Assembly: GCA_937888925.1 (NCBI GenBank)
Contig: CALARM010000662.1
Span: 1 to 29,653 of the forward strand
Length of the DNA stretch: 29,653 nt
Direction: 5' to 3'
Source: an uncultured Synergistia bacterium
GTDB lineage: Bacteria; Eremiobacterota; SpSt-956; JAKJGF01
A program made the position numbers and the translations under genes. The notes below the pieces were generated by a model. That model worked only from the letters and a program-made list of their open reading frames with translations. It was not told where the DNA came from and did no database searches. This document shows, piece by piece, positions 429-25,603 of the stretch (its first letter is position 1; every line of letters starts with the position of its first letter).

Positions 429-487
429 TCAGAAGGAAACCGGATATTTTTACCATAAAAATGTTTTTCAGATGAATGGAGAAATTC

Positions 488-1216
488 ATGAAGATAAATA
501 CCATTTTGGCTCATAAAAGTTTTACTGCGAATAAAAAATGTGAAGATAAAAAGCAGGATGTTGAGCCGAAAGACACCTATATTCCATCTGAAATAGGAGA
601 AGAAAAAGAACATACCCAGCATCTATCCAATGCAGGCTTTGGCGCATCATCAGTCATCACTATGGGGAAAAACCTGAAGACTCTTGCAGGAATAGCTTCA
701 AATTCCAAAATAGCAAGATTTGTTCCAGGCCTTAATTTTGGAGTCGCCGGTATTGAAACATACCATGCCATAAAATTCCTTCATAAAGGTGAACCAGTGG
801 TGGCAGCCACGTCTGCCGGTAATGCCGCAGGCTGTATGAGTTCTTTCCTGGAAGAATCCGGTACCCTGTCCATGCTTGCCTCAAATGCAACAAATATGGC
901 AGCCCTGCGGCTCGGAGCGTCTGCCTTCGGAGTAATGGGCGGATTACTCGGTATAGTAGCGGGAGCAAAAGAAATAAAAGAAGGGAAAAAGATAAAAGAG
1001 GCTACCGGTTCAAATAGAACCCTTGCTATGGGTGTTCTTGATATTGCTTCCGGTGTAACCTCTCTTGCAGGTGGTGCTCTCTGTGCTACAGGAGCAGGAG
1101 CAGTATTCGGCCTTCCATGTCTTCTTGCTGCCAGTTTGTTCGATATAAGCGGTATTGTAGTCGATTATTACGGAAAGAAAATAGAAGAAAAGATTAAAGG
1201 CACGGGAGATAAGTAA
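488..1216 (+). CDS. Small Gly/Ala-rich hydrophobic protein of unknown function
   Basis: I place the start at ATG 488 because GGAG (478-481) lies six bases upstream; the in-frame ATG at 476 has no ribosome binding site. The product is 242 residues. The first ~55 residues are polar and charged. The rest is rich in small hydrophobic residues with repeated Gly/Ala spacing (for example GASAFGVMGGLLGIVAGA, then an Ala/Gly-rich run ending in GLPCLLAA), ending with a charged tail KKIEEKIKGTGDK. Glycine-zipper-like membrane segments of this kind occur in pore-forming effectors, bacteriocin-like proteins and membrane-inserting proteins. There is no signal peptide. The gap of 239 bases before the next gene, which has no other recognisable gene or convincing promoter, argues against a shared operon. 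I do not recognise the family. Confidence 0.75.
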   Translation: MKINTILAHKSFTANKKCEDKKQDVEPKDTYIPSEIGEEKEHTQHLSNAGFGASSVITMGKNLKTLAGIASNSKIARFVPGLNFGVAGIETYHAIKFLHKGEPVVAATSAGNAAGCMSSFLEESGTLSMLASNATNMAALRLGASAFGVMGGLLGIVAGAKEIKEGKKIKEATGSNRTLAMGVLDIASGVTSLAGGALCATGAGAVFGLPCLLAASLFDISGIVVDYYGKKIEEKIKGTGDK

Positions 1217-1455: not shown

Positions 1456-3081
1456 ATGAAAGAAGAAAGATGGGTACCTGTATTTATAAGAGATAAAAAA
1501 AACAGGTTTTTGTTTAAATGGCATGATGAATGGGAAACATATCATTTTCTGGGAGGCAAACAGAGAGAAGGAGAAAAAACGGTTGAAGAAACAATAAGGA
1601 CAAAAATAAGGAAACAACTATCTCTGGAATATGGAGATGATTATGGAGTCAAACCTCTTACAGATAAATTTAGATTTATTCAATATTCTCTTGAAAACAA
1701 AGCTGAACAGTACTATATATGTTATCCCCATCATATAGTTTTTTTAAAAAAATGGGAAGAAATAGAACATATAATTAATAAGAAAAATAAAGAAATGTGC
1801 CGTTGTAAAGGTAAGAATTACGAATATTTGAAATGGTTTTCCATTGAAGAATTATCTACTGCCAGATTAATCAGGGGAACGATAAAAGTTAAAGAGGAAG
1901 AATTAAGAGCTTATAAGCTGGAGATAACTGCTTCTAATGAGAATTTTTATATATCATATCCACTGCTTGATATAATGTGGAATATGACTAAAGAAGAAGA
2001 ATATCATGGTAATAAAGAATTACTGGAAAGCGGATTATATAAAATTGAAGAAAGTGTAAATAATATACTTGTAGAATTGAGAAGAAGTCACATATATACA
2101 GGAATCAGTTCGAAAGCATTTAAATTAATCGATAAGATAAAAGAAGCTATATACGATCCTTTTGAAAGACCGATACTCTTAATTGGCAATCCGGGAACCG
2201 GAAAATCTACTATGGCAAGGGCTATTCATAATCTTTCAAAAAGGGGTAAAGATAAAGAAGAAAAGAAAAAAACAGGAACCGGTAATAGTGGCACTTCCGA
2301 CATGAGTGCAGGCAGTTGGAAAAGAAAAGAAAGAACAGGGGATTTTGATTCCACAACTCTTGCAGGTATAAGTGATGAAAATTTTCAATGTGCCGTATTT
2401 GGTCATACAAAGGATGCTTTTACCGGTGCAACAGGAGAAAAATCTGGACTTTTAGAAAGGTGTCATGGGGGCACTGCTTTCCTTGATGAAGTTACATCTT
2501 TGACTCCTTCCGGCCAGCAGATTCTTTTGAATACTCTCGGAATCGATTTCTTTAAAGGTTTTACAAATTTAAGCTTTTATAAATTCGGCCATGCTTCAAC
2601 AGATCCTGTTAAATCAAATGTAAGAATAATATCTGCTACAAATCAAAAACCTTTTTATGAAAATCAGGAGATAAGATTTGAAGGTTTTCGACCTGATCTT
2701 ACTGCAAGACTGGCAGGACATGTTATAGAATTACCTGATCTGAAAGATATTAAAGAAGAGTGGGATTATATTATAGATTCTTTTTTAAGAGATCTGTCTG
2801 ATGAATGTGAGTATAAAGAAAAATTCCTGGAGATATTAAATTACAATACTGAAGAAAAGTCTCATAGATATAATAATAAAAATATAAAATTCGAATTTAA
2901 ACTGCAAGAAGAAGCAAGAAAAGAGCTTACCGGCGGAAAATATTCATTTAAAGGAAATTTTAGAAGTCTGATAAGAATCCTTGCAGATTCAATCTGCAGT
3001 GCTATGAAGCAAAAAGACAGAGTAGACGGAGATATAATTCACATTGTAATTAAAAAAGAACATTTACCGGACATAGAGTGA
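1456..3081 (+). CDS. Sigma-54-activator-type AAA+ ATPase with N-terminal degenerate Nudix domain
   Basis: 541 residues, first gene of the transcription operon. Residues ~1-125 have the Nudix fold pattern: GGKQREGE near residue 33 and a closing YLKWFSIEEL. The Nudix box REUXEE is replaced by RTKIRKQ, so hydrolysis is unlikely and ligand sensing is more plausible. Residues ~215-500 are the AAA+ domain of sigma-54 activators (bEBPs): Walker A GNPGTGKST (244-252), sigma-contact loop DAFTGA (320-325, normally GAFTGA), Walker B GGTAFLDEV (338-346), sensor I VRIISATN, Arg fingers R412 and R418 in FRPDLTARL, and sensor II GNFRSLIRIL. A ~35-residue Lys-rich insert follows Walker A. No Fis-type HTH is present at the C terminus. 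The gene is 10 bases upstream of the fused polymerase. Inference: it remodels the sigma-54-like protein encoded two genes downstream. Confidence 0.9.
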   Translation: MKEERWVPVFIRDKKNRFLFKWHDEWETYHFLGGKQREGEKTVEETIRTKIRKQLSLEYGDDYGVKPLTDKFRFIQYSLENKAEQYYICYPHHIVFLKKWEEIEHIINKKNKEMCRCKGKNYEYLKWFSIEELSTARLIRGTIKVKEEELRAYKLEITASNENFYISYPLLDIMWNMTKEEEYHGNKELLESGLYKIEESVNNILVELRRSHIYTGISSKAFKLIDKIKEAIYDPFERPILLIGNPGTGKSTMARAIHNLSKRGKDKEEKKKTGTGNSGTSDMSAGSWKRKERTGDFDSTTLAGISDENFQCAVFGHTKDAFTGATGEKSGLLERCHGGTAFLDEVTSLTPSGQQILLNTLGIDFFKGFTNLSFYKFGHASTDPVKSNVRIISATNQKPFYENQEIRFEGFRPDLTARLAGHVIELPDLKDIKEEWDYIIDSFLRDLSDECEYKEKFLEILNYNTEEKSHRYNNKNIKFEFKLQEEARKELTGGKYSFKGNFRSLIRILADSICSAMKQKDRVDGDIIHIVIKKEHLPDIE

Positions 3082-3091
3082 GGTATGAAGA

Positions 3092-6000
3092 ATGGATAAA
3101 AAACCTTATAAAACCCAGAAAGACTCCTACAGGCCTTTCTGGGAAGACGAGAAGTATAATGATAATTTTTCCCATATTCCTTTTCAGGTTCTTATGGAAA
3201 ATTTTCTCATAGATATATTTCCAGCTTACAGGGTATATGTATATAAACCTGAAATAACAGAAATTAATGATAGTCTCCGTTTGAAATATAGAGCAGAATT
3301 ACTTCATTCGTCAACATCTCAATCTATAGAAAAGTTTTTTCAGTTTTTAGTTCCGGCGATTACCGGAAGAGGCACTTTTATAATAGATGATATTGAAAGA
3401 GTATTTTTACTTCAGCTTGTCTCGAGCGCCGGTATATTTTTTGGAGATAACTCTGTTTCTATAAGACCGGCCATGGGCTATTGGATTGATTTCGACCTTT
3501 CTCCTTCCAGAAATTATCCTTATGGAACAGTAAGATTAAAGAAACATTATAAAATACCTGTTCCTGTATTTTTGAAATTAATAGGCTTTACAGCAAAAGA
3601 TTTTAAAGAAACCGGTATGACGGAAATAGAAATAAGTAAGCCTGTAAACAGGCAAATTTCCGAATTGACCGGGATTGATGATGAAAAAAAGTGGCCTGCC
3701 ATATTCAAAAAAGATTTTTTAAATCATATTGATATGGGTAGAACAGGTATATGGCAGTTAAGCAGAAAACTCGATATAAAAAAGAAAGATACATTTCTGA
3801 CAAAAACTGATATAAAAAATATGCTTCAGATAATCAAGGAGAATAATTACCGGGATGATTTAGATTGTCTTTCCAACAGGGTGGTAATGCAAATAGGAGA
3901 CCACCTGGAAAGAACAATAGATAGTATACTGACCGCTCTTAAAAAGAGTATTATAAAAGAACATAAGAATGATCAAGCAGGTGTTCTCTTTGATTATATA
4001 AGAAGAGTTCTTCCCGGCCGGACAGTTGAAGCAGTTAAGACCCTTTTTAAAAGCTCATCTCTTTCGCAGATTATTCCATCTACAAATATACTTTCCGATG
4101 TAACCTTTACAAGAAGAATTACAAAATTCGGGCCGGGAGGAATCAGCAAACAGACGGCAGAAGACTATAAAGTAAGAGATCTTCATAGTTCATATTATGG
4201 AAGAATCTGTCCTGTTGATACTCCTCAGGGAGAGAATGTTGGTGTTGTGCTCAGTCTTACGGAAAATACCAGAATAAATGGACTTGGTATTCTGGAAGCA
4301 CCTTATTATAAAGTTAAATATAGAAATAAAAGATTTTACATAAATGAAGAACCGGTATGGATGACACCTGACCAAGAAAAAAAGTATTTTATAGCTTACG
4401 GTGACCGGATAATTTCGAAAGATCAGGAAATAGTGCAGGTAAGAAAAGACGGCAAAGAGCTTCTGGAAGTGGAAATAAATAAAGTGGAATATATTGATTC
4501 CTGTCCTGAACATGCCTGTGGGCTTACAGCCAGATTGATTCCATTTCTTTCTAACAATGATCCTTCAAGAATGATGATTTCCTGCGCACTTATGCAACAG
4601 TTTCTTCCTCTGAAAAAGAGGGAATTACCTCTTATTTATACAGGATATGAAAAGATTATAGCAGAAGAGTCAGGCCAATTATACAGGAAAGGTGACAGAG
4701 GCAAATATTCAGGGCCACAGGCAAGCCATCTTAATGTTCTTAAAGGAAGTATTGAATTAAAAAAAGAGAAAGAAGCCAGTGAAGGCGATATTATAGCTGC
4801 TCCTCCGTCAACTCTGGACGGAGAGCTTGCCGGCGGTGTAAATCTGCTTGTAGCCTATCTTCCCTGGAAAGGGTACAATTATGAAGATGCCATAGTAATT
4901 TCAGATGAACTTGTAAAAGAAGAACTTCTGACTTCACTTCATTCCGATGGACTGGAAAAACCTGTTGAAGTCGGAGATAAACTTGCTAACCGCCACGGTG
5001 GAAAAGGAGTTGTTTCTCTTATTCTTCCAAAGGAGAAAATGCCTTATTTTTTTGATAAAGACGGAAATAAACGTCACATACAGGTAATATTAAATCCTCT
5101 GGGAGTAATTTCCAGGATGAATCTCGGACAGATTTTTGAAACTCATCTGGGATTAATTGCCAGAGAAAATAAAACCAGATACATGGTTCCTGTTTTCGGT
5201 AATACAATTACAGAAAGATCTGAGGAGCTACCTCTTTCTTCTGAAATACCTGAAAGTTACAGATTGTTTTCACAGATAAAACATAAACTTGAAGAATTGA
5301 GAAAAACGTTTAAAGGTATTGATGAAAACGGTAAAATAACTCTCTATGATCCTGAACTTGGAGAAATAAAGAATTCTGTTCTGGCTGGCTATCAGTATAT
5401 CATGAAATTAAACCAGCTTGCCAGGGATAAGTTTAATTTCAGGAAGGACGGGCCATATTCTTATATTACGGAACAGCCGGTAAAAGGAAGGAAATTCCAT
5501 GGCGGACAGAAAGCAGGTGAAATGGAGGGCTGGGCACTTCAATCTTACATGGCTTTTGAAAATTTAAGAGAATTTTTTACCCTTAAATCTGATGATATAG
5601 CATCCAGAACAAAAGATATAAGAGGAGTCCCTGAGTCTTTGAAAACTTTTATTTATTATCTTAGAGGAATGTGTCTTGATCTTAATTTCTTTGCTAAAGA
5701 TGGTAAAAATATAACGGAAGAGCTTCTTTATGATGAGATTTCCCCTGATGAAATAGACACTATAAAACTGGATATTGCCGGTGAAGATATTGTAAAGGAA
5801 TGGTGTTGCGGCAGACAGATAACGTTATCTACTCTGAGAGAGGAAAGGACAGAAACTCTGGCAGATATGGACGGTACTATTTATAGTAAGGAATTCTTCG
5901 GTGAATGGAGGAAAAATAAAAAGATAAATCTGGATATATGGCTTGTAGTGACTGATAGTATATTAAACAAAGTAAAAAGGAAAATTTCGAAAGATAAAAG

Positions 6001-8536
6001 AGAATTTTTAAAGACTCTTAAAAACAGAGCATTTACAAGGGAAGAATTGATTAAAAAGCTTTTAAAAAAGAATTTCAGTAATAAAGAAATTGAAATAATA
6101 ACAGGAGAAGCACGTGTAAATATCAGTAACAGACCCCTGAAAAACGAAATCTTCGGAGAATGTTTGAAAAAACTGGATATACAGGAAAATAATATAGCAG
6201 ATGGTGTAGTGAAGCTTATAAATAACCATGAAAAGTGGGAAGCTCTTCTGAAAATCTTAAGAAGATATTTCTATGAAGAAAGCATAAATGACTTCGATGT
6301 TTATATGAGAGAAAATGCATTTATAAAAACCTTCGGTAATCACCTGGGCGATTATTTGAGAGAAATGACTGTTTTCTTTCCCAGGGCTTTAAATCGTCTG
6401 AAACTGGACAATAAAAAACTTCTTCGTCATAGAATGGCCTGTATATCATTACCTGAAGCGGTAAAACATCCTCTTTTTAGTTTTAAAGAAAATATAAAGA
6501 TAAAGCTTCTCCCTGTAATACCTTTCGCTTACAGACCTGTTATATCTCAGAATGGTATATGTATAAGCCATGATCTGAATACTCATTACGAGTGGATTCT
6601 TCATTTAATGAACGGAATATATAATAAAGATAAATTTTACAGGGTTCTTCACAGACTTTTTATAAATAAGAAGATAAAAGTAAAAATAAATGAGAAAGAG
6701 GAAATTCAAATTTATCCTCTTAAAATAGATGGTATTCCGGCCAGTTCTTTTATGAAGCTTCTGGAAGGCAAAGATGGATTTATAAGAAAATATATGCTTG
6801 GTAAAAGGGTTAATTACAGCGGACGCGGTGTAATAGTTGTAGATCCTTCTCTGGAGATAGACCAGGTAAGAATAGCTTCGAAGGATGTATTGAAATCTAT
6901 AATGGAACTTGAAGAACCGTATGGTCTGGACGAAACTGATTATGAAACTATGAGAAAAAAGATTGAGAACCGTCCTTTGTTACTTAACAGACAGCCGTCG
7001 CTTCATCGTCTTTCCATACAGGCTTTTAAGAATATTCCATTACCGGAAAATTCGGAATATGTTATTTATATAAATCCTCTTGTAACAGGAGGGTTTGGAG
7101 CCGATTTTGACGGAGATACCATGGCTTTTCACATACCTCTTTCACGGGAAGCTGTGAAAGAAACAGAGAAAATGTTACCTTCACATAATATTCTTTCCCC
7201 CGCCAGCGACAGGATTCATTTCAGCCTGGGACAGGATATAAAACTGGGTCTTACTGCCGGACGATATAATAGTGAGCTTATAGAAGAATTGTCTCCTGGA
7301 AAGACGGAAATTTCTGAAAAAGATCTGCAAAATTTTATACTTGAAATAGATAAAAATAATAAAGACATAGATATAATATCGACGATATCAAAGAAACTTT
7401 CTCTCATATTAAAGCTAATATATGAACAATCTACCCTTTCCGGAACAACTTTTTCAATATTTGATCTGCCTCTCAGATCAGGGAATTCGGAGAAAGAACT
7501 TGAACTTTATGAACAGGGTAAAAAGAATGAAGATGAAATTGACTTCTTTAAAGATAATAATACTCTTTTCTCCATATATCCTGCGAAGGCCAGAGGCTCG
7601 AAAGATAATTTAATTCAGATGTGTTATAAAAAAGGAAAGGTTTCAGGCATAAGGGATAGAAAAGACGGGGATCGTGAGATTAATTCCTGTTATATGGAAG
7701 GTCTCACAGCAGGTGAGTATTATTATGCAAATTATGGCGCAAGGCAGGGCATTGTTTGTAAGAAACTCGGCACAGGTAAAGGAGGAGATCTCACAAGACA
7801 TCTTATAGAAGCGGTCTATGATATTACCATAACGGCAGAAGACTGTAAAACAAAAGAAGGAATAAAATTGACTCCTTATATGATTGAAAACGGCATCTGC
7901 CTTACAGGACGCTATATGACAGGAGACAGTAAGCCACTTGATGAAGAAAAAATCAAAGATATTTTAAAGAATGGAAAAGATATAACTCTCCGTTCTCCTC
8001 TTACCTGTGCTCAGAAAGATGGTATATGCAGTTTATGTTACGGTAATTTTACAGGTAAATTACCTGAACAGGGCCTTCCTGTCGGTATTATTGCCGCTCA
8101 GACCATAGGAGAAAGGGGGACTCAGCTTCAGCTTAAAATAATTCATCTTGCCGGTCAGACTGATATAAAACAAGCTATAGGACAGGATCTGGACGGAGCT
8201 GTAAAACTGTTTAAATTAAATCCCGAAAAACTTCTTGAAACAGAATCTTTTGTAAATAAAGAGGAGCTGTACGGGAAACTGATGAGTTTTGCCAGAAGTG
8301 TATACAGTAAATCAGATATACTTGACAGGCATTTTGAGGTGATTTTCCGTTATATGCTTCAAAAATATCCTGATAAAAAGATCAGAAAACTCAAAGAAAT
8401 TATAGAAGACGGTGATTTCCTTAATAAAATTACTTTTTCTTCTACGTTGAAGTTACTGGCAGAGGCAATATTAAATAAACATAACATAATAAAACTCGGA
8501 GGCCTTAAAAAAAGACTCCTGTTCACATCATTTTAG
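3092..8536 (+). CDS. Single-chain RNA polymerase: fused, reduced beta and beta-prime subunits
   Basis: 1814 residues; SD GAGG before ATG 3092. The beta part (~1-870) shows GTFIIDDIERV (94-104), the rifampicin region with TRRITKFGPGG, YGRICPVDTPQGENVG, PWKGYNYED (E598, D599), the active-site lysines in GDKLANRHGGKG (K630, K638), NPLGVISRMNLGQ, GEMEGWALQSY (809 on) and VPESLKTF (846 on). The beta-prime part (~880-1814) shows DGTIYSKEFFG, LGKRVNYSGRGVIV (1236 on), NRQPSLHR (R1300), the Mg-binding loop GADFDGD (1336-1342; D1338, D1340, D1342), bridge helix GARQGIV (1549 on), zinc site Cys1585/1639/1646/1649, trigger loop GERGTQLQLKIIH (His1685) and a normal beta-prime C terminus. Each separate subunit is usually ~1150 residues or more. 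The beta flap and the N-terminal beta-prime zinc domain are missing. The intact catalytic set suggests an active enzyme. Alpha is not encoded nearby. Confidence 0.95.
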   Translation: MDKKPYKTQKDSYRPFWEDEKYNDNFSHIPFQVLMENFLIDIFPAYRVYVYKPEITEINDSLRLKYRAELLHSSTSQSIEKFFQFLVPAITGRGTFIIDDIERVFLLQLVSSAGIFFGDNSVSIRPAMGYWIDFDLSPSRNYPYGTVRLKKHYKIPVPVFLKLIGFTAKDFKETGMTEIEISKPVNRQISELTGIDDEKKWPAIFKKDFLNHIDMGRTGIWQLSRKLDIKKKDTFLTKTDIKNMLQIIKENNYRDDLDCLSNRVVMQIGDHLERTIDSILTALKKSIIKEHKNDQAGVLFDYIRRVLPGRTVEAVKTLFKSSSLSQIIPSTNILSDVTFTRRITKFGPGGISKQTAEDYKVRDLHSSYYGRICPVDTPQGENVGVVLSLTENTRINGLGILEAPYYKVKYRNKRFYINEEPVWMTPDQEKKYFIAYGDRIISKDQEIVQVRKDGKELLEVEINKVEYIDSCPEHACGLTARLIPFLSNNDPSRMMISCALMQQFLPLKKRELPLIYTGYEKIIAEESGQLYRKGDRGKYSGPQASHLNVLKGSIELKKEKEASEGDIIAAPPSTLDGELAGGVNLLVAYLPWKGYNYEDAIVISDELVKEELLTSLHSDGLEKPVEVGDKLANRHGGKGVVSLILPKEKMPYFFDKDGNKRHIQVILNPLGVISRMNLGQIFETHLGLIARENKTRYMVPVFGNTITERSEELPLSSEIPESYRLFSQIKHKLEELRKTFKGIDENGKITLYDPELGEIKNSVLAGYQYIMKLNQLARDKFNFRKDGPYSYITEQPVKGRKFHGGQKAGEMEGWALQSYMAFENLREFFTLKSDDIASRTKDIRGVPESLKTFIYYLRGMCLDLNFFAKDGKNITEELLYDEISPDEIDTIKLDIAGEDIVKEWCCGRQITLSTLREERTETLADMDGTIYSKEFFGEWRKNKKINLDIWLVVTDSILNKVKRKISKDKREFLKTLKNRAFTREELIKKLLKKNFSNKEIEIITGEARVNISNRPLKNEIFGECLKKLDIQENNIADGVVKLINNHEKWEALLKILRRYFYEESINDFDVYMRENAFIKTFGNHLGDYLREMTVFFPRALNRLKLDNKKLLRHRMACISLPEAVKHPLFSFKENIKIKLLPVIPFAYRPVISQNGICISHDLNTHYEWILHLMNGIYNKDKFYRVLHRLFINKKIKVKINEKEEIQIYPLKIDGIPASSFMKLLEGKDGFIRKYMLGKRVNYSGRGVIVVDPSLEIDQVRIASKDVLKSIMELEEPYGLDETDYETMRKKIENRPLLLNRQPSLHRLSIQAFKNIPLPENSEYVIYINPLVTGGFGADFDGDTMAFHIPLSREAVKETEKMLPSHNILSPASDRIHFSLGQDIKLGLTAGRYNSELIEELSPGKTEISEKDLQNFILEIDKNNKDIDIISTISKKLSLILKLIYEQSTLSGTTFSIFDLPLRSGNSEKELELYEQGKKNEDEIDFFKDNNTLFSIYPAKARGSKDNLIQMCYKKGKVSGIRDRKDGDREINSCYMEGLTAGEYYYANYGARQGIVCKKLGTGKGGDLTRHLIEAVYDITITAEDCKTKEGIKLTPYMIENGICLTGRYMTGDSKPLDEEKIKDILKNGKDITLRSPLTCAQKDGICSLCYGNFTGKLPEQGLPVGIIAAQTIGERGTQLQLKIIHLAGQTDIKQAIGQDLDGAVKLFKLNPEKLLETESFVNKEELYGKLMSFARSVYSKSDILDRHFEVIFRYMLQKYPDKKIRKLKEIIEDGDFLNKITFSSTLKLLAEAILNKHNIIKLGGLKKRLLFTSF

Positions 8537-8556
8537 ACAGGGAGATGTAAAGAAAC

Positions 8557-9798
8557 ATGGCAGTTACAAAAAAGACTGGCTTAAAGGGTGTAAAATTACC
8601 ACGGGTAAAACCTGATATAAGACCGGATGTGGAAAAAACTCCTGCCATAGAAATAGCAAAGAAAATTTCTATTTATTGCTCCAGGGAAATTCTGCGAAAC
8701 CCTTCGGAAGAGATTTTATGTGATATATGCGGCAGATATTATCCTTCCGAACAATATGAATGTCCCTTCTGTTTTGATGAAGAAGAGAGGGAAGAAGAGA
8801 GTTTTTCACCGGAAGACTTTTCAGACGATGATGAAGAAGCCGGTTCTGAAGTTGCTATTAAAAGAAATTTTTTATTTGAAAATTCTCCCTGTGAACTTAA
8901 TATAGAAGAGAGTTTTATGAGCAGATTTGAGTCACTCGTAAAAAATGAAGAGAAATTTAAATCTGTAGTTCCTGAACTGGCTCCATGTGATGATAAAACA
9001 GTAAATTTATTGAGAAGAACTTTATATGAAATATTCGAGCTTTCTGATATAGAAAGCGGAAGAATAGCGCCGGAAATTTCCAGATTGACGTCTCTCGAAG
9101 ATTCTCTGGATGAAGAAAAACCTTCTGTAGATGAAGGTGTATTGACTGATAGTATTTTTCAGATTGCAAAGTTTTTATTCGATGAAATGACTGAAGAGAT
9201 AAAGAATATGTATAAACAGGAAGAAATAATGCCGGGAATAATAATAAATGATTACGGTGACGGCAATCTCTACCAGGAAGTTCCCTCTTATCTTCCGGAC
9301 TATTTAGAACTTTCTGATAATTTAATAACTGAAGAGAGAATGGAAACGTCCAATTTCCTCCATTATTATAAAGAAAAACTGAAATGGCTTTATTATACAG
9401 GCGAGTTTTTAATAAGGGAAGAAAAAGATTTTTTTCTGGGTAAGACAGATGAAGTTACAGAAATAAGACAGGTAGATCTATTGGATTACATAAAAAAAAG
9501 GACAGGAAGAAACCTTCATAAAGGTACTATTTCCAGGATTTTTTCCGGTGAATATGTTCAGTGTCCTGACGGTAAAATTCTTCCTTTGAAGTATTTTCAA
9601 ACTACCACCAAACAGGACTTTCTGGAGGAACACAGAGAGTGGGTTAAAGAAAGAGTCTATGAAGGATTAAAGGATAAAGAAATTGCAGATATTATGAATA
9701 ATGAATGGGACAGGTTTTTTATAACAAAGGACGATATTCAGGATTTCCGTACAAAGAAACTTGGGATTGAGAAGAAGAGGGGCAGAGCTGGAAGATAA
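8557..9798 (+). CDS. Divergent sigma-54 (RpoN-like) factor with N-terminal zinc ribbon
   Basis: 413 residues, 20 bases after the fused polymerase. The C-terminal half follows RpoN: MPGIIINDYGDGNLYQ (225 on) corresponds to the TPDVIV core-binding segment; KLKWLYYTGEFLIREEKDFF precedes the HTH; GTISRIFSGEYVQCPDG and LPLKYF (323 on) match the STVSR...KYVQTPRG...LKYFF block; EIADIMNNEWDRFFITKDDI then QDFRTKKLGI (395 on) matches the segment leading into the RpoN box. The box itself is TKDDIQDFRT rather than ARRTVAKYRE, so promoter recognition probably differs from the usual -24/-12. The N terminus lacks the Gln/Leu-rich region I; it carries a Cys4 ribbon (C55, C58, C69, C72) and an acidic stretch (~75-95). 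A SREILRNPSEEIL segment may be a relic of the ENPLLE part of region I. Role inferred: dedicated sigma for the fused polymerase. Confidence 0.88.
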   Translation: MAVTKKTGLKGVKLPRVKPDIRPDVEKTPAIEIAKKISIYCSREILRNPSEEILCDICGRYYPSEQYECPFCFDEEEREEESFSPEDFSDDDEEAGSEVAIKRNFLFENSPCELNIEESFMSRFESLVKNEEKFKSVVPELAPCDDKTVNLLRRTLYEIFELSDIESGRIAPEISRLTSLEDSLDEEKPSVDEGVLTDSIFQIAKFLFDEMTEEIKNMYKQEEIMPGIIINDYGDGNLYQEVPSYLPDYLELSDNLITEERMETSNFLHYYKEKLKWLYYTGEFLIREEKDFFLGKTDEVTEIRQVDLLDYIKKRTGRNLHKGTISRIFSGEYVQCPDGKILPLKYFQTTTKQDFLEEHREWVKERVYEGLKDKEIADIMNNEWDRFFITKDDIQDFRTKKLGIEKKRGRAGR

Positions 9799-10646: not shown

Positions 10647-10675
10647 TTTATATTAAAAAGTGTAAGTTGTAAAAT
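10647..10675 (+). promoter_or_regulatory. Promoter candidate with AAGTTGTA motif (copy 1)
   Basis: TTTATA (10647-10652) and TAAAAT (10670-10675) are 17 bases apart, 49 bases before ATG 10724. The -10 hexamer overlaps the octamer AAGTTGTA (10664-10671), which recurs at the same distance upstream of two other genes (11049-11056 and 25592-25599). The recurrence at matching spacing raises confidence above that of a single AT-rich match. Confidence 0.45.
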
Positions 10676-10723
10676 AATTTGGAATTGATGGAAAACATGT
10701 GATATTTTTAAGGAGGTGGAAAA

Positions 10724-11031: not shown

Positions 11032-11060
11032 TTTATCTAAAAAAGTATAAGTTGTATAAT
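11032..11060 (+). promoter_or_regulatory. Promoter candidate with AAGTTGTA motif (copy 2)
   Basis: A perfect -10 hexamer TATAAT (11055-11060) has TTTATC (11032-11037) 17 bases upstream, 55 bases before ATG 11116. The octamer AAGTTGTA is at 11049-11056. Both the -35 (TTTAT) and the octamer match the copy upstream of 10724 at identical spacing. Confidence 0.5.
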
Positions 11061-11115
11061 TATTTAACATTTATCGGTAGATAGAGATAATATTTTTATG
11101 AAAGGAGGAGTTGCA

Positions 11116-11577: not shown

Positions 11578-14532
11578 ATGACAGTAGATAATAATTCTAG
11601 CCAGGATAATAAAGAAATATGCAGGGATATATTAAAACCTGGCATAATCCTGGATAAGAGATATGAGATAAAATCTCTTCTCAGAACATGCGAAAATGAG
11701 AAAGTTTATGAAGCCTTTGATCATAGATTTGAAAAGAGATTGTGTGTTGTAAAAGAAATCGTTCCGTCTGCTGTTGACCTGAACAGTCATCAGAATATGT
11801 CTGCCACTTTTAAAAAAGAAGCTACAATTCTCTCCAGAATGAGACACCCCGATTTACCTCTTTTAGTAGATTACTTTGCCGAAAATGGCCGCTATTATCT
11901 TGTCATGGACTATATGGAAGGCGTAACCTTTGAAAAGGTTATTAAAAATAAAGATCTTATAAATGAAGATAAAGTGATAGACTGGGCAAAAGATATACTC
12001 GATGCTCTGGAATATCTTCACAATCAATCTCCTTCTTTTGTATATCAAAACCTTAATCCACGTAATATAATACTTCGTAATTCAGATGGAAAAGCAGTAA
12101 TTTCGGATTTCGCTATAGAGAGAACAGTTGAAAAATGGAGGGGAACCGTACAATTGAATAGTTTTATTCCTGCCTTTGCCCCTCAGGAATTACTTGACGG
12201 GAAACCGGAACCTGCCAGTGATATATACTCACTTGGAGCGGTAATGCACTGTCTTTTAACCGGTATATTGCCGGAAAAACCATGCGATTTTAAGCCTGTT
12301 AGAGACTTTAATCAGAAGGTGTCGGAAGAACTTGATGCGATAATAATGAAAGCTCTTTCCGTTTCCGTGAAAGACCGTTATGTAAGTGCCGGGGAGATGA
12401 GAGACCTTCTTGAGGAATTGAAAGGAAAGACCAGAATTTTAAGTAAAGCGGAAATTCAGGTTGTTGAAGCTATACCGGAGAGGGAGGTTTCTGCTGTTAC
12501 ATCTCAGACTGTTCCTGAAAGAGATATTTCAGAGTCTTCTTACAGGGGAATATCATCTGATAAAATCGGAATATGGAATAAAATTATAAAATCTACCTGG
12601 TTATTATTTGGTTTTAAGATAATTTATCGTTTTGTGCTGGTTACACTTATAGTTTCATATATTATCTGGGTAATTACTGGCCCTGCTCATTTTAAAGATG
12701 ACTTTTGTTTTGGATATTATCATAACTTTTTTGATGTTTTTTACTGGATGTTTTTTACTATTAATATTTATTTACTTGTGCCGATACTCTGTTTTATTTC
12801 TGTATTTTTTTATAGTTGGTATAATGAGGTTGGTAGTAAATTTAATAGCTCTATAATAACTGTTGTCTCTTTTATTTTGAAAGGAATACAGGGGTTTATT
12901 GGAGGTACAGGTATAGGAATATTTTTATGTATAGTTATATGTTTACTACTTAAAGATATAACAACTGATAAAATTATTGATTTATTTATTCTTATTATGT
13001 TACCTGCTTGTGGATTCATCGGAGTAATTACGATATACTATAAATATAAATCAGAAAACTTTTTTATAAAAGTTTTCTCTTTTCTATTATTTGTTGGTAC
13101 ATCCTTAATTGTATCTTTAATATTACTTGTATTGATTGGTGTATTGATGAATGAAATTATCGGTTGTAATATTCCTTATAAAGGTGAAATTCTATTTCTT
13201 TTATTTGCAGTATTTTTTCTAGCTATTGTATATCTTCAGTTTTTTCCTCCATCAGGTAAGAAATTTGTTATTCCTTCATCAGGTAAGAAATTTTCTATTC
13301 CTTTATTTTATTCTGATAAAGTGTCATTCTGTTATTCATATTTACATGAAAAATCCGGTAAAATTCATCCTCTAATCTGGTTTTTAGCCGGATTTGTTTT
13401 AATGCCTGTAACGTTATACTTTTTCTCTTATTATATAGGTTTATGTACATACTCAAATCAAACCTGTTATCTTGCTTATTTGAATAAATCCCTGGAAGTT
13501 AACCCTACCGATACAAATATATGGATTAAAAAGGGAGATCTTTATTATAGTAATCGTAGATATCAGGATGCTATAGATTCTTATAACAGGGCTCTGGTAA
13601 GTGATCTTTTTAAATATAAAGGTATTTACATATTAGATGGAATTTGCGATTATTATAAATATTCTGCTGATTTAGAAAAAGTTGATCCTCTATATGCCCG
13701 TATAGAAAGCAGAAAACAGGAAGCTTCAAGAGAGCTTGTATCTCTACAGACATTTTATATTACAAAACCTGAAATGGTTTTAATCAGTGGCAATACCTTT
13801 CAGATGGGAGAGATAGTGGAAGGAGAATATTATTCTGAATTTTCCAGTAATCCTCATACAGTTACTCTGACTGATTTTTATATAGGGAAATATGAAGTGA
13901 CAAATAAAGAATTCAGTGCTTTTTTAAATTCTCAGGGTAATCAGATTGAAGGGGGGAGACCATGGGTAATAATAACAGTTGCTGGTAAAGAAAATTCATT
14001 CGGAGCGTTATCAGGTTGTTCTGCACCTGGGACAATTGTAATCAGAAGTGGTTATTTAACTCATCCTGTAATTTTTGTAAGCTGGTACGGAGCAGTAGCT
14101 TATTGTAACTGGTTAAGTGAAAAGGAAGGATTGTCTCCATGTTACGGGCCCAAAGATAACAGAGGAAATGGCGATATAAAGAAAAACGGATACCGTCTTC
14201 CTACGGAAGCAGAGTGGGAATATGCCTGCGGAGGAGGAGTAAATACTAAATATTTCTGGGGTGATGAGGATGATATATTATATTATGCTCCCACCTATTA
14301 CCCGGTTGGACAGATGAAGCCAAATAGTTTCGGTCTTTATGATATGATTGGAAATGCTTCCGAATGGTGTAATGACTGGTCCGGAGATTATCCTTCCGAA
14401 CCGGTTATTAATCCTGTCGGCCCTGCTACCGGTTCAGAGAAGATTATAAGAAACAAATTTCGTGGGCGTATGCATTATGACCTATTATCAACAAAGTTTT
14501 TATCAGGCTTCCGGCTTGCAAGAACTCCTTAA
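11578..14532 (+). CDS. Membrane pseudokinase-TPR-FGE-sulfatase fusion
   Basis: 984 residues. Residues ~27-290 have a Ser/Thr kinase fold but key positions are lost: no Gly-rich loop (LLRTCENEKVYEAF), the HRD-equivalent is YQN with Asn158 in place of the catalytic Asp, the following Lys is Asn160, and DFG is DFA (D177). The ATP-site Lys59 (VVKE) is kept. Residues ~341-621 hold about seven or eight membrane segments. A TPR-like pair of helices follows (~630-681, LEVNPTDTNIWIKKGDLYYS). Residues ~731-984 are an FGE-sulfatase/SUMF1 domain (EMVLISGNTFQMG, YEVTNKEFSAFLNS, YGAVAYCNWLSEKEGLSPCYG, NGYRLPTEAEWEYACGG, FGLYDMIGNASEWCNDW, GFRLARTP). The usual RGGSW/RSA..R C-terminal motif is degenerate. 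It has the same design as the gene at 22153 and likely works in membrane signalling, not as an active kinase. Confidence 0.9.
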   Translation: MTVDNNSSQDNKEICRDILKPGIILDKRYEIKSLLRTCENEKVYEAFDHRFEKRLCVVKEIVPSAVDLNSHQNMSATFKKEATILSRMRHPDLPLLVDYFAENGRYYLVMDYMEGVTFEKVIKNKDLINEDKVIDWAKDILDALEYLHNQSPSFVYQNLNPRNIILRNSDGKAVISDFAIERTVEKWRGTVQLNSFIPAFAPQELLDGKPEPASDIYSLGAVMHCLLTGILPEKPCDFKPVRDFNQKVSEELDAIIMKALSVSVKDRYVSAGEMRDLLEELKGKTRILSKAEIQVVEAIPEREVSAVTSQTVPERDISESSYRGISSDKIGIWNKIIKSTWLLFGFKIIYRFVLVTLIVSYIIWVITGPAHFKDDFCFGYYHNFFDVFYWMFFTINIYLLVPILCFISVFFYSWYNEVGSKFNSSIITVVSFILKGIQGFIGGTGIGIFLCIVICLLLKDITTDKIIDLFILIMLPACGFIGVITIYYKYKSENFFIKVFSFLLFVGTSLIVSLILLVLIGVLMNEIIGCNIPYKGEILFLLFAVFFLAIVYLQFFPPSGKKFVIPSSGKKFSIPLFYSDKVSFCYSYLHEKSGKIHPLIWFLAGFVLMPVTLYFFSYYIGLCTYSNQTCYLAYLNKSLEVNPTDTNIWIKKGDLYYSNRRYQDAIDSYNRALVSDLFKYKGIYILDGICDYYKYSADLEKVDPLYARIESRKQEASRELVSLQTFYITKPEMVLISGNTFQMGEIVEGEYYSEFSSNPHTVTLTDFYIGKYEVTNKEFSAFLNSQGNQIEGGRPWVIITVAGKENSFGALSGCSAPGTIVIRSGYLTHPVIFVSWYGAVAYCNWLSEKEGLSPCYGPKDNRGNGDIKKNGYRLPTEAEWEYACGGGVNTKYFWGDEDDILYYAPTYYPVGQMKPNSFGLYDMIGNASEWCNDWSGDYPSEPVINPVGPATGSEKIIRNKFRGRMHYDLLSTKFLSGFRLARTP

Positions 14533-14545
14533 GAGGTGTATAAAA

Positions 14546-16534
14546 ATGTCAGTTTACTGTGAAAAATGCGGACATAAAAATACGGACTCGGCAAAATTCT
14601 GTCAGGGTTGCGGTGATCCTGTAGTTCTTCTTACCGACTACGGCATATTGAAAGCAGGTGTAATCCTTGATAAAAGATATGAAGTAAAAAGGCTTATCAG
14701 GGCAGGAGGTATGGGTGCAGTATATGAAGCCATGGATCATAGATTTGAAAACAGGATTTGTGCCGTAAAAGAAATGCTCAATCAGGCAAAAGGGCCTGAA
14801 GATGAGCAGTATATAATTGACCGGTTCAAAAAAGAAGCTTTCATATTAAGAAGTCTCAGACATAAACATCTTCCTGTAGTGACAGATTACCTTATAGAAA
14901 ACGGCCGTTACTATCTTGTCATGGACTACATAGAAGGTAAAGACCTCGATATTATGATAGGTAATTTTATAAAAGGAGATTCTACTGAAAATCCTGAAGC
15001 TGAAGATATAGAAGTAAAGGTAAATGAAGGCATACCTGAAGACACTGTAATAGAATGGGCGAAAGAGATACTTGAAGCACTCGAATATCTCCATACTCTG
15101 ACTCCTCCCATTGTTTACCGTGACCTGAAACCTGCCAATATAATGCTTCGCTCTTCAGATCATAAGGTAGTACTTGTAGATTTCGGTATAGCAAGACCTG
15201 TTACTGCCGGAAGTGATAGTACCAAGACAATTGTCGGAACTCCGGCTTTTTCCCCGAAAGAATTATTTGAAGGTAAACCTGAACCGAGAAGTGATATATA
15301 TTCCCTGGGAGCTACCATGCACTGCCTTCTTACAGGCATTATACCAGTAATACCATGTGCCTTCCGGCCTGTAAGAGAACATAATCCCAAAATATCAGAA
15401 GAACTTGCAGAAATAGTAATGAAGGCTCTTTCCATTTCACCGAAAAAACGTTATGAAAGTGCAGGTGATATGAGAGAAGCTCTTGAAAAATTAAGACCTA
15501 CAAGAAAAACGGATAGTTTAAATCTGGAAAAAGAAACAACTTCAGAAGAAGGGGAAGGTTTATCATCTCAAGCTATTCAGTCCTATAAACCTGAAAAAGC
15601 AGAACAAAACCTGTCTCAGGCAAAATTTTCTTTTTCTCTGTTTTCATTTGTAAAAACTGCTACAGGAAAGGTTCTTTTAATTTCTTTATCTGCATTGATA
15701 CTTATCTCTGTTTTATTGTTCATAATCTTCTCAGATAAGAATAAAATATCCTCTTCCTCAGAAGGTCCGAGGATGGTTTTAATTCAGGGAGGCACTTTTG
15801 ATATGGGAAAGATTGATTCCGGAAGTAAAGAAGTGGTTCACAGTGTTACTATCAGTTCTTTTTATATGAACAGATATGAAGTGACAAACAGTGAATACTG
15901 TGCCTTTTTAAATTCTATGGGAAATCAGACTGAAGGAGGATCTATCTGGATTAATGTCGATGGTAAAGAATGTGGTATAACTAAATGGTCTACTTCAGGA
16001 ACATTTAAAGTAAAGGATGGTTATGAGAATAAGCCTGTCATATATGTAACCTGGTTCGGAGCGGTGGCTTACTGTAACTGGCTGAGTGAAAAAGACAGAT
16101 TAAGCCAGTGTTACGGACAGAAAGATAAAAGAGGAAACTGTGATATAAAGAAGAACGGATATCGTCTTCCTACGGAAGCAGAGTGGGAATATGCCTGTTG
16201 TGGCGAAGATCTGACTTATGATAAGATAAATAATATGGCCTGGTACAGGTATAATTCAGGCAATAACACTCATGATGCAGGACAGAAGAGTCCTAATAAG
16301 TTCGGTTTATATGATATGAGAGGAAATGTGTGGGAGTGGTGTAATGACTGGTACGGAGATTATTCTCCGGAACCTGTGACAGACCCGGGAGGTACTTCAT
16401 ACGGAGCTTACAGAATTGGCAGGGGAGGAAGCTTTATGACAGGAGAAGAAAGCCTATATCGCCAGAAACGCAGCACTTTTGATCCTTTAAAGGGATATCC
16501 AGATGTAGGATTTCGTATTGTAAGGACTCCGTAA
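14546..16534 (+). CDS. Ser/Thr protein kinase with zinc ribbon and FGE-sulfatase domain
   Basis: 662 residues. I start at ATG 14546 (AAGAGGTG upstream), 13 bases after the previous gene, not at an in-frame ATG inside that gene. The N terminus is a Cys4 ribbon (C5, C8, C19, C22; CEKCGHKN...FCQGCG). The kinase domain (~50-335) is intact: RAGGMGAVY loop, Lys75 (AVKE), YRDLKPAN with Asp193, DFG Asp212, GTPAFSPKE in the activation segment, and SDIYSLGAT. An acidic insert follows the hinge (~135-160). One membrane helix lies at ~370-392, placing the FGE-sulfatase domain (~408-662; GGTFDMG, NGYRLPTEAEWEYAC, FGLYDMRGNVWEWCNDWYGD, RGGSF, GFRIVRTP) on the other side of the membrane. It is the only kinase in the window with the full catalytic set, so it is the likely writer for the neighbouring pseudokinases. 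Confidence 0.92.
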   Translation: MSVYCEKCGHKNTDSAKFCQGCGDPVVLLTDYGILKAGVILDKRYEVKRLIRAGGMGAVYEAMDHRFENRICAVKEMLNQAKGPEDEQYIIDRFKKEAFILRSLRHKHLPVVTDYLIENGRYYLVMDYIEGKDLDIMIGNFIKGDSTENPEAEDIEVKVNEGIPEDTVIEWAKEILEALEYLHTLTPPIVYRDLKPANIMLRSSDHKVVLVDFGIARPVTAGSDSTKTIVGTPAFSPKELFEGKPEPRSDIYSLGATMHCLLTGIIPVIPCAFRPVREHNPKISEELAEIVMKALSISPKKRYESAGDMREALEKLRPTRKTDSLNLEKETTSEEGEGLSSQAIQSYKPEKAEQNLSQAKFSFSLFSFVKTATGKVLLISLSALILISVLLFIIFSDKNKISSSSEGPRMVLIQGGTFDMGKIDSGSKEVVHSVTISSFYMNRYEVTNSEYCAFLNSMGNQTEGGSIWINVDGKECGITKWSTSGTFKVKDGYENKPVIYVTWFGAVAYCNWLSEKDRLSQCYGQKDKRGNCDIKKNGYRLPTEAEWEYACCGEDLTYDKINNMAWYRYNSGNNTHDAGQKSPNKFGLYDMRGNVWEWCNDWYGDYSPEPVTDPGGTSYGAYRIGRGGSFMTGEESLYRQKRSTFDPLKGYPDVGFRIVRTP

Positions 16535-16554
16535 AACGGCCATGACCGTTTCGG
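16529..16554 (+). terminator. Hairpin over the stop codon of the active kinase gene
   Basis: AAACGG (16534-16539) pairs with CCGTTT (16546-16551) around a six-base loop. The outer CCG (16529-16531) can also pair with CGG (16552-16554) if two bases bulge. No T-run follows, so a Rho-independent terminator is not certain; RNA-end protection is an alternative. Confidence 0.4.
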
Positions 16555-16565
16555 TAACAACTAAG

Positions 16566-16621
16566 TATGAGAATCTGTTCCTCCCGTCATGCGTTACGCG
16601 TTACGCGCTACGATTCTCATA
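16566..16621. repeat. Four-unit GTTAC heptad array inside a perfect inverted repeat (copy 2)
   Basis: TATGAGAATC (16566-16575) and GATTCTCATA (16612-16621) are a perfect ten-base inverted repeat. Between them, at 16584-16611, lie four consecutive heptads: CCGTCAT, GCGTTAC, GCGTTAC, GCGCTAC. The design matches the array at 242-279. It lies between the kinase gene and the STAND gene, about 30 bases before the latter's start, so it could form a long hairpin in the transcript or serve as a binding site. Confidence 0.65.
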
Positions 16622-16651
16622 TAAATCATATTTAACGAAAGGGAGTTTATC

Positions 16652-21268: not shown

Positions 21269-21297
21269 CTGAAAGCTAATTAAGAAGGGAATTAATT

Positions 21298-22119: not shown

Positions 22120-22152
22120 AAATCATAAAAAAAATGAAGGAGGATTTGTTTT

Positions 22153-25572: not shown

Positions 25573-25603
25573 TTTGCCTTTAAATATGGGCAAGTTGTAT
25601 ATG
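25573..25603 (+). promoter_or_regulatory. AAGTTGTA motif (copy 3), promoter candidate
   Basis: AAGTTGTA (25592-25599) followed by TATATG (25598-25603) lies 52 bases before ATG 25651, the same distance as upstream of 10724 and 11116. The best -35 candidate (TTTGCC, 25573-25578) has a 19-base spacer and is weak. Confidence 0.3.

What the first reader, a model, noticed from the sequence alone, without database searches (positions are those of the whole stretch)
1456..9798. Three-gene operon encoding a complete second transcription machine: fused RNA polymerase, sigma-54-like factor and its AAA+ activator
Seen: three tightly spaced genes (10 and 20 bases apart) encode a sigma-54-activator-type AAA+ protein, a single-chain beta/beta-prime polymerase and an RpoN-like factor. 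Known: sigma-54 holds polymerase closed until a bEBP ATPase remodels it; normal cells use the housekeeping core for this. Inference: this is an orthogonal, ATP-gated polymerase with its own promoters and regulon. Fused rpoB-rpoC genes are known (Helicobacter, Wolbachia) but are full-size housekeeping enzymes; some jumbo phages carry divergent multi-subunit polymerases but, to my knowledge, none is paired with sigma-54 and an activator.
Basis: partly seen in the sequence, partly recalled or inferred. Interest (0 to 1): 0.96.

Follow-up and report, generated by a model that had tools for sequence, protein, structure and literature searches.

The report
Private ATP-gated second RNA polymerase
A piece of DNA, probably from an uncultured bacterium, carries three adjacent genes for a shrunken one-piece RNA polymerase, a sigma-54-related promoter protein and an ATP-driven activator, which likely work together as a private, switchable second transcription system.

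Summary
They encode a Nudix-AAA+ sigma-54-type activator, a fused beta/beta' RNA polymerase of 1,814 aa, and a sigma-54-derived factor of 413 aa. The polymerase keeps its metal-binding aspartates and most active-site residues tested, but lacks the beta flap, the beta' zinc finger and most of the jaw. In published structures the flap and zinc finger hold the sigma-54 core-binding domain. The sigma-like protein keeps a clear sigma-54 ELH-HTH module (0 of 1000 shuffles score as high), but its Region I and core-binding domain are not recognisable by sequence, so both sides of the usual interface are altered. Word-based searches of 5.8 billion proteins found no close relative of polymerase or sigma, and two of the activator. 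The polymerase sits on a long branch outside housekeeping, split-phage and fused-viral enzymes, but its placement is unresolved. Best reading: a dedicated, ATP-gated second polymerase. Not shown: activity, conservation of the trio, or a separate housekeeping polymerase (no genome held). No polymerase or sigma relative turned up to go with the two activator relatives, mild evidence against a conserved trio.

The parts
1456..3081 (+). Activator: degenerate Nudix N-terminal domain fused to a sigma-54-activator AAA+ domain, no C-terminal DNA-binding HTH
   Evidence: Sigma54_activat 1.7e-27. Two relatives (51% and 36% identity over residues 1-235) score NUDIX just above the gathering cut-off (21.8 and 23.5 against 21.1 bits). 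The alignment with PspF shows the window protein ending before the PspF C-terminal HTH.
1456..1905 (+). Nudix-derived domain, predicted ligand sensor; glutamates of the Nudix box are replaced
   Evidence: Alignment with P0122 and P0123, which score PF00293 over cut-off. The window's own N-terminal part gives no Nudix hit. The Nudix-box consensus is recalled.
2185..2208 (+). Walker A, GNPGTGKS
   Evidence: Alignment with PspF, P0122, P0123
2413..2430 (+). GAFTGA loop, here DAFTGA: the element that contacts sigma-54 Region I in known activators
   Evidence: function of the motif from PMC7057263 (passages)
2479..2490 (+). Walker B, FLDE
3092..8536 (+). Single-chain RNA polymerase: beta-like part (about residues 1-870) fused to beta'-like part (about 880-1814)
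4061..4129 (+). Rifampicin-pocket region with substitutions at E. coli positions 516 (P), 526 (F), 531 (T)
   Evidence: Alignment
4883..4888 (+). Active-site E598-D599 (E. coli beta E813-D814)
4955..4960 (+). Site of the missing beta flap (E. coli beta 838-1057 absent; about 120 residues absent against Monoglobus and Pontibacillus)
   Evidence: ED-to-GDK spacing is 27 aa against 147-341 in the 118 of 119 RpoB rows that could be measured and 146-260 in five references
5897..5941 (+). Place where the beta' N-terminal zinc finger (Cys70/72/85/88) would lie; the cysteines are missing
7097..7117 (+). Metal-binding motif GADFDGD (E. coli NADFDGD, D460/D462/D464)
7844..8038 (+). Second beta' zinc site, all four cysteines kept (C1585, C1639, C1646, C1649)
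8099..8152 (+). Trigger-loop region; Gln929 and His936 kept, Met932, Arg933, Thr934 and Phe935 substituted
8557..9798 (+). Sigma-54-derived promoter factor
   Evidence: Sigma54_DBD 6.7e-05, TIGR02395 6.2e-05 but far below its cut-off (22 against 277 bits); HMM against shuffles; AF2 model matched to sigma-54 structures
8719..8772 (+). CxxC-x10-CxxC, a predicted zinc ribbon followed by an acidic linker, where sigma-54 Region I/II would be
   Evidence: Sequence; cysteine positions
9217..9606 (+). ELH-HTH module (residues 221-350)
9607..9771 (+). C-terminal helix-turn-helix at the place of the RpoN domain; the RpoN-box sequence ARRTVAKYRE is not conserved
   Evidence: RpoN-domain HMM 1.5 bits, reached by 30 of 1000 shuffles; confident helices in the model

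Best explanation
These three adjacent genes encode a shortened single-chain RNA polymerase, a sigma-54-derived factor and a Nudix-AAA+ activator, which likely form one dedicated, ATP-gated second transcription system. Inferred steps: the sigma-like factor docks on the fused core by an interface of its own, because the core elements that hold normal sigma-54 are gone, and brings it to promoters unlike the standard -24/-12 type. The closed complex waits until the AAA+ ring, with its DAFTGA loops, hydrolyses ATP and remodels the factor. The degenerate Nudix domain, predicted to bind rather than cleave a nucleotide-type ligand, is the switch. With no DNA-binding domain, the activator would act from solution and not from an enhancer. 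Shown directly: gene order and spacing, domain identity, conserved motor motifs of the activator, conserved metal-binding and most tested active-site residues of the polymerase, and absence of the flap and beta' zinc finger.
For: Operon-like spacing of 10 and 20 nt with Shine-Dalgarno-like GAGG and GGGAG. The polymerase keeps D460/D462/D464, E813/D814, K1065, K1073, R1106, R425, R731, trigger-loop H936 and the second zinc site. Of 953 columns invariant in four housekeeping enzymes it keeps 365 (38%); retention is higher around K1065-R1106 (25 of 33), the Zn2/trigger-loop part (20 of 31), the fork/rifampicin part (32 of 62) and the beta' catalytic barrel (58 of 118), and 0 of 66 in the flap. 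The flap and beta' zinc finger that hold the sigma-54 CBD (PMC10786286, passages) are absent, and the CBD of the neighbouring factor is not recognisable by sequence (127 of 1000 shuffles score as high), although it is recognised in all eight RpoN proteins held out in turn (31-128 bits). The ELH-HTH is sigma-54. The activator keeps Walker A, Walker B, the AFTGA core and sensor ATN. Codon usage is uniform across the trio (r 0.92-0.95).
Against: Region I, the part of sigma-54 the activator must grip, is not recognisable (148 of 1000 shuffles score as high). Trio conservation is not shown: the database that holds the two activator relatives gave no polymerase or sigma relative other than the window's own. 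Several usually invariant active-site residues are changed: beta' N458 to G, K789 and A791 to G, trigger-loop M932/R933/T934/F935 to L/K/I/I, beta H1237 not conserved; bridge-helix part only 24 of 55. Loss of the beta' zinc finger is not special: 0 of 43 fused viral enzymes and 5 of 9 split phage enzymes show its motif. No excess of -24/-12 sites in the window (8 found, 8.95 expected). No alpha gene seen in the window. No whole genome held, so a separate housekeeping polymerase is assumed. The sigma model was built with RpoN rows in its alignment, which biases it towards that fold. The activator model failed (mean pLDDT 42).
Confidence: 0.5

Rival explanations
1. The Nudix-AAA+ protein is an ordinary regulator that acts on the host's normal sigma-54 polymerase, for example to switch on this operon; the fused polymerase and its sigma-like factor work downstream without ATP gating.
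For: Two relatives of the activator exist, but no polymerase or sigma relative was found in the same database. Region I of the sigma-like factor is not recognisable. The activator's motif stays close to the canonical one.
Against: The activator lacks the DNA-binding domain that normally directs such proteins to one operon, and it is the first gene of the same tight cluster.
Confidence: 0.22
2. The polymerase comes from a phage or plasmid and has been domesticated, or sits in a decaying element, with the sigma-54-like factor recruited later.
For: Fused polymerases of about 1,800-2,500 aa occur in viral contigs, and none of the 43 compared has the beta' zinc-finger motif, as in the window. The best tree puts the window next to split phage enzymes with 76% support; AU tests do not reject a sister relation to them (p 0.60) or to the fused viral clade (p 0.12).
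Against: Mean identity is higher to four housekeeping enzymes (30.5%) than to nine split phage (26.5%) or 43 fused viral enzymes (24.6%). The viral enzymes keep a flap-sized segment of 134-184 residues against 32 here. No phage structural family among the Pfam or PHROG hits of the window genes scanned (the WD40 gene was not scanned with PHROGs). No sigma-54, sigma-like or activator hit within the 136 viral loci. One activator relative is labelled as coming from a bacterial MAG.
Confidence: 0.15
3. The sigma-54-like protein is not a partner of the fused polymerase but directs the host core to other promoters; co-location is regulatory only.
For: It is still recognisably related to sigma-54, and some structural rows align a CBD-like stretch, though at high rmsd.
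Against: Its CBD, which would bind the host flap and zinc finger, is not recognisable by sequence, and the neighbouring core lacks exactly those elements.
Confidence: 0.08
4. The fused gene is the only RNA polymerase of a reduced or very divergent organism.
For: No housekeeping copy could be looked for. Fused housekeeping genes exist (NCBIfam models PRK09603 and PRK14844).
Against: Scores of 543 and 534 bits against cut-offs of 5372 and 4632. Loss of the flap would remove the dock for sigma-70 region 4 (recalled). The neighbours (large kinase-FGE and WD40 proteins, a transposase) do not look like a reduced genome.
Confidence: 0.03

Closest known systems
Sigma-54 (RpoN) holoenzyme with a bacterial enhancer-binding protein (PspF, NtrC, RtcR)
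   Same: ELH-HTH module, activator AAA+ domain with Walker motifs and AFTGA core; best-scoring named activator models are RtcR-type (126 bits each, the NCBIfam one far below its cut-off of 650)
   Different: Own dedicated single-chain core; no flap or beta' zinc finger; Region I and CBD unrecognisable by sequence; Nudix-derived sensor in place of the CARF domain named in the RtcR models; no DNA-binding domain on the activator
Fused rpoBC of Helicobacter and Wolbachia
   Same: Beta and beta' in one chain in the same order
   Different: 1814 aa against models of 2890 and 2839 positions; scores about a tenth of the cut-offs; flap, zinc finger and most of the jaw missing
Jumbo-phage multisubunit RNA polymerases (phiKZ, AR9) and mReC phage enzymes
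   Same: Divergent second polymerase of multisubunit type; for jumbo phages, own promoter recognition and no alpha (PMC7598289, passages; PMC7481178, abstract and passages)
   Different: Those are split into several chains, and no sigma-54-type factor or activator appears in the passages read; the window enzyme is one chain and lies outside the mReC clade, next to it at 76%
Single-chain phage RNA polymerases (crAss-like phi14:2 gp66, P23-45 gp64/gp96)
   Same: One polypeptide with both catalytic barrels (PMC10770324, passages and section 12)
   Different: The crAss enzyme is described as too divergent for easy sequence detection (PMC7481178, passages); the window enzyme is readily recognised by RpoB and RpoC models. 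Direct comparison not made
Duplicated rpoB of Nonomuraea (the 'magic' RNA polymerase)
   Same: A bacterium with a second polymerase form (PMC5431353, title and start of abstract in the search listing only)
   Different: Only rpoB is duplicated according to that listing; no dedicated sigma-54-type factor or activator is mentioned there

Membership tests
Bacterial-type multisubunit RNA polymerase | Catalytic Asp triad, beta ED pair and lysines, bridge helix and trigger loop | tested here: met
   D1338/D1340/D1342, E598/D599, K630, K638, R1300, T1561, H1685 kept; bridge helix and trigger loop present but with substitutions (K789G, A791G, M932L, R933K, T934I, F935I in E. coli numbering)
Bacterial-type multisubunit RNA polymerase | Beta flap | tested here: not met
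   E. coli beta 838-1057 absent; spacing 27 aa against at least 146 in the five references and the 118 of 119 RpoB rows measured
Bacterial-type multisubunit RNA polymerase | Beta' N-terminal zinc finger | tested here: not met
   Cys70/72/85/88 not conserved; motif found in 4 of 5 references by pattern, and the fifth, Pontibacillus, has four cysteines at the place with a two-residue insertion
Bacterial-type multisubunit RNA polymerase | Assembly on an alpha dimer | not testable with these tools
   No alpha hit among the window genes scanned; no whole genome held
Sigma-54 (RpoN) | ELH-HTH module that recognises the -12 element | tested here: met
Sigma-54 (RpoN) | RpoN box ARRTVAKYRE that recognises -24 | tested here: not met
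   Alignment; RpoN-domain HMM 1.5 bits, reached by 30 of 1000 shuffles
Sigma-54 (RpoN) | Region I, activator-interacting | tested here: not met
   Sequence only: HMM -0.6 bits, 148 of 1000 shuffles as high; no Pfam hit. A diverged Region I is not excluded.
Sigma-54 (RpoN) | Core-binding domain | tested here: inconclusive
   No sequence signal (127 of 1000 shuffles), but some VIA rows align model residues from about 112 on with sigma-54 residues from about 116 on, at high rmsd
Sigma-54 activator (bEBP) | Sigma54_activat AAA+ domain with GAFTGA loop and Walker motifs | tested here: met
   1.7e-27; DAFTGA, GNPGTGKS, FLDE, ATN
Sigma-54 activator (bEBP) | C-terminal DNA-binding HTH (common, not universal) | tested here: not met
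   Ends before the PspF HTH in the alignment; no HTH hit
Fused housekeeping rpoBC | Passes the PRK09603 or PRK14844 cut-off | tested here: not met
   543 against 5372 and 534 against 4632 bits
Fused viral RNA polymerase clade found here | Clusters with the clade | tested here: inconclusive
   Outside a clade with 100% support in the best tree, but the AU test does not reject joining it (p 0.12)
Jumbo-phage vRNAP/nvRNAP | Beta and beta' split into several chains | tested here: not met
   One ORF of 1814 codons
crAss-like / P23-45 single-chain RNA polymerases | Sequence or structure grouping with those enzymes | not tested
   No sequence of theirs was compared

The most novel reading that the evidence does not exclude
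A cellular bacterium runs a self-contained second transcription machine: a flapless one-piece polymerase, a private sigma-54-derived factor and a ligand-switched AAA+ opener. The core lost the flap and zinc finger while its factor lost the matching core-binding domain, so the pair is locked together and insulated from the host enzyme. This would be the first orthogonal ATP-gated polymerase of cellular life.
Probability: 0.35. Interest if true: 0.95.

Novelty: new variant of a known kind. Interest (0 to 1): 0.83.

Why it matters
Bacteria are taught as having one RNA polymerase that swaps sigma factors. A second polymerase with a dedicated, ATP-gated sigma would show that a cell can split off part of its genome under a separate, switchable machine, as eukaryotes do. 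It would also test how much of the core (flap, zinc finger, jaw) can be removed if the sigma factor changes with it, and it could offer a naturally insulated transcription system for synthetic biology. It asks directly whether sigma-54 gating needs the flap-CBD contact.

Tried and rejected
Artefact or chimera: thought unlikely. Codon usage agrees across the trio and with seven of eight neighbours tested, and the sigma protein is on 9 contigs and the polymerase cluster on 5.

Membership in the fused viral clade: tested with a 25-taxon tree (LG+F+G4, 1373 columns). Housekeeping, mReC and fused viral groups each have 100% support; the window groups with mReC at 76%; AU tests reject none of three placements (p 0.60 with mReC, 0.38 with housekeeping, 0.12 with fused). 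Origin unresolved. Of 52 ORFs that span both halves, 45 near-complete ones passed the filter, 43 were kept after removing near-duplicates, and 10 of the 43 with 9 split pairs went into the 25-taxon tree. A first IQ-TREE run on all 58 timed out; FastTree on the 58 also put the window with mReC, with weak support (0.60).

Promoters: no excess of TGGCAC-N5-TTGC sites with up to two mismatches. A 24-base motif at 10658 and 11043 may be an ordinary extended -10 promoter.

Structure: the activator model (3 rows) failed at mean pLDDT 42 and was not searched. The sigma model (mean pLDDT 59.7) is confident over residues 271-400 (block means 73-91) and partly over 121-160, and below 50 at 246-264 and in most of the N-terminal part; it was used for the C-terminal part only. 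The polymerase was not modelled.

Relatives: sigma and activator scans of viral contigs, the three-row activator alignment there, and the sigma scan of genome contigs found none. Sigma against phages: none. Sigma against plasmids at E up to 1: 11 records; of the 10 listed, seven are annotated rpoN (25-32% identity), two an antitoxin, one has no annotation. The polymerase as a single sequence found none in viral contigs. P0122 against plasmids and the window activator against phages gave only partial AAA+ matches in the rows listed. A search of 99 relatives of G001 found none, and the tool warns this shows nothing without a positive control. No Rfam match.

Literature: ten searches were run, of which 84 and 122 asked other questions. 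In the rows listed (for, 15 of 5,296 papers) I saw no paper on a polymerase paired with its own sigma-54 factor and activator. The library holds open-licence papers only, so this is weak evidence of absence.
Full report
OBSERVATION. The window holds three forward ORFs at 1456-3081, 3092-8536 and 8557-9798, separated by 10 and 20 bases. The second and third have Shine-Dalgarno-like sequences in front. Pfam and NCBIfam identify them as a sigma-54-activator AAA+ protein, a fused RpoB-RpoC-type polymerase and a weak sigma-54 DNA-binding-domain match.

POLYMERASE. Aligned with RpoB+RpoC of E. coli, Monoglobus, Tsukamurella, Sinorhizobium and a Pontibacillus plasmid copy, the chain runs in the order beta then beta', with the join near residue 870-880. 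It keeps the metal-binding Asp triad (as GADFDGD), the ED pair, K1065, K1073, R1106, R425, R731, the trigger-loop histidine and all four cysteines of the second zinc site. Other usually invariant positions are changed: N458, Q465, K789, A791, trigger-loop M932/R933/T934/F935, and beta H1237. Missing relative to the references are the beta flap (E. coli beta 838-1057), the beta' N-terminal zinc-finger cysteines and most of the jaw. The distance from the ED motif to the GDK motif is 27 residues; in the 118 of 119 RpoB proteins's capped list that could be measured it is 147-341. Of 953 columns invariant in four housekeeping enzymes the window keeps 365, changes 398 and lacks 190. Retention is 25 of 33 around K1065-R1106, 20 of 31 in the Zn2/trigger-loop part, 32 of 62 in the fork/rifampicin part, 58 of 118 in the beta' catalytic-barrel part, 24 of 55 in the bridge-helix part and 0 of 66 in the flap. 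Three rifampicin-pocket positions are substituted, so the enzyme is predicted to be insensitive; that is inference. The chain is about equally distant from all five references (34-35% over beta, 29-34% over beta'; counts).

ACTIVATOR. Walker A, Walker B, the AFTGA core and the ATN sensor align with PspF; the protein ends before the PspF HTH. The best-scoring named activator models are RtcR-type, the NCBIfam one far below its cut-off. Its N-terminal half has two relatives among 1,591 candidates drawn from 5.8 billion proteins, P0122 (51%, labelled Candidatus Eremiobacterota) and P0123 (36%), both with a NUDIX domain just above the Pfam cut-off. In the window protein the glutamates of the Nudix box are replaced (consensus recalled), so ligand binding without hydrolysis is predicted.

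HOW IT MAY WORK. In published structures the sigma-54 CBD is held by the beta flap and the beta' zinc finger (PMC10786286, passages read), and the activator's GAFTGA loop contacts Region I (PMC7057263, passages read). Here the core lacks both docking elements and the neighbouring factor lacks a CBD recognisable by sequence. The simplest reading is a co-evolved private interface, with ATP gating kept through the AAA+ protein. Both steps are inferred: the factor's Region I is not recognisable, and nothing shows that these proteins bind each other.

DISTRIBUTION AND ORIGIN. Sigma: only itself among 3,614 candidates. Polymerase: itself, then RpoB-type proteins of up to 1,347 aa at 32-36% in the 120 rows listed of 7,750. 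No relative of the trio was found in phages, plasmids or viral contigs. None of the 43 fused viral enzymes compared has the beta' zinc-finger motif, but all keep a flap-sized segment (134-155 residues in the span where the window has 32). So zinc-finger loss is shared with viral enzymes, and flap loss was seen only here. The window enzyme lies outside them in the best tree, on a branch of 1.3-1.5 substitutions per site, next to split phage enzymes at 76%, and its placement is statistically open. Its identity to housekeeping enzymes is higher (30.5%) than to split phage (26.5%) or fused viral (24.6%) enzymes.

WHAT COUNTS AGAINST. The database holding P0122 and P0123 showed no polymerase or sigma relative, although a close polymerase relative should have outranked RpoB proteins at 34%. 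P0122 lies on a 6.3-kb contig and could have run off the end; P0123 lies on 19 kb, where this is harder to excuse. No genome is held for the window, so the housekeeping copy is assumed. No promoter class was found.

VERDICT. Observation confirmed; interpretation partly supported; a surprising, testable candidate whose mechanism and conservation remain unproven.

Noticed in passing
L081, L083, L089, L091, L101, L118, L129, L149 and others (IMG/VR loci): 45 near-complete fused beta-beta' RNA polymerase ORFs of about 1,800-2,500 aa in viral contigs; the 10 used in the tree form a clade of their own (100%). Of 43 compared, none has the beta' zinc-finger motif and all keep a flap-sized segment. I did not establish whether this clade is described.
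   Followed up: partly
L014 (NZ_CP062975.1, 897,839-bp Pontibacillus plasmid): A plasmid carries annotated rpoB, rpoC and rpoA genes in a row, with rpoB next to a ribonuclease J gene: apparently an extra standard-type polymerase set.
   Followed up: no
window 10658-10681 and 11043-11066: Two copies of AAGTRTAAGTTGTAWAATWATTTR in front of two small ORFs (10724 and about 11117); the pattern was written from these two copies, so its shuffle expectation of 0 is not independent. A looser 12-base core is not enriched (5 found, 4.82 expected), one of its matches lying near 25588 before the gene at 25651.
   Followed up: partly
window 11578-25527: A cluster of large proteins that combine protein kinase and FGE-sulfatase domains, with a 1538-aa WD40 protein and a stand-alone kinase; the ORFs at 11578 and 14462 overlap by about 70 bases as listed.
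   Followed up: no
window 476-1216: A 246-aa Gly/Ala-rich hydrophobic protein without Pfam match just upstream of the trio; only a marginal hit (E 0.02) to a T6SS effector family model. Its codon usage differs from the other genes tested.
   Followed up: no
window 27926-29185: Mutator-family transposase; its two genome contigs matches are at 43% (a Dehalococcoidia MAG) and 41% (a Deltaproteobacteria MAG), so it does not identify the host.
   Followed up: yes
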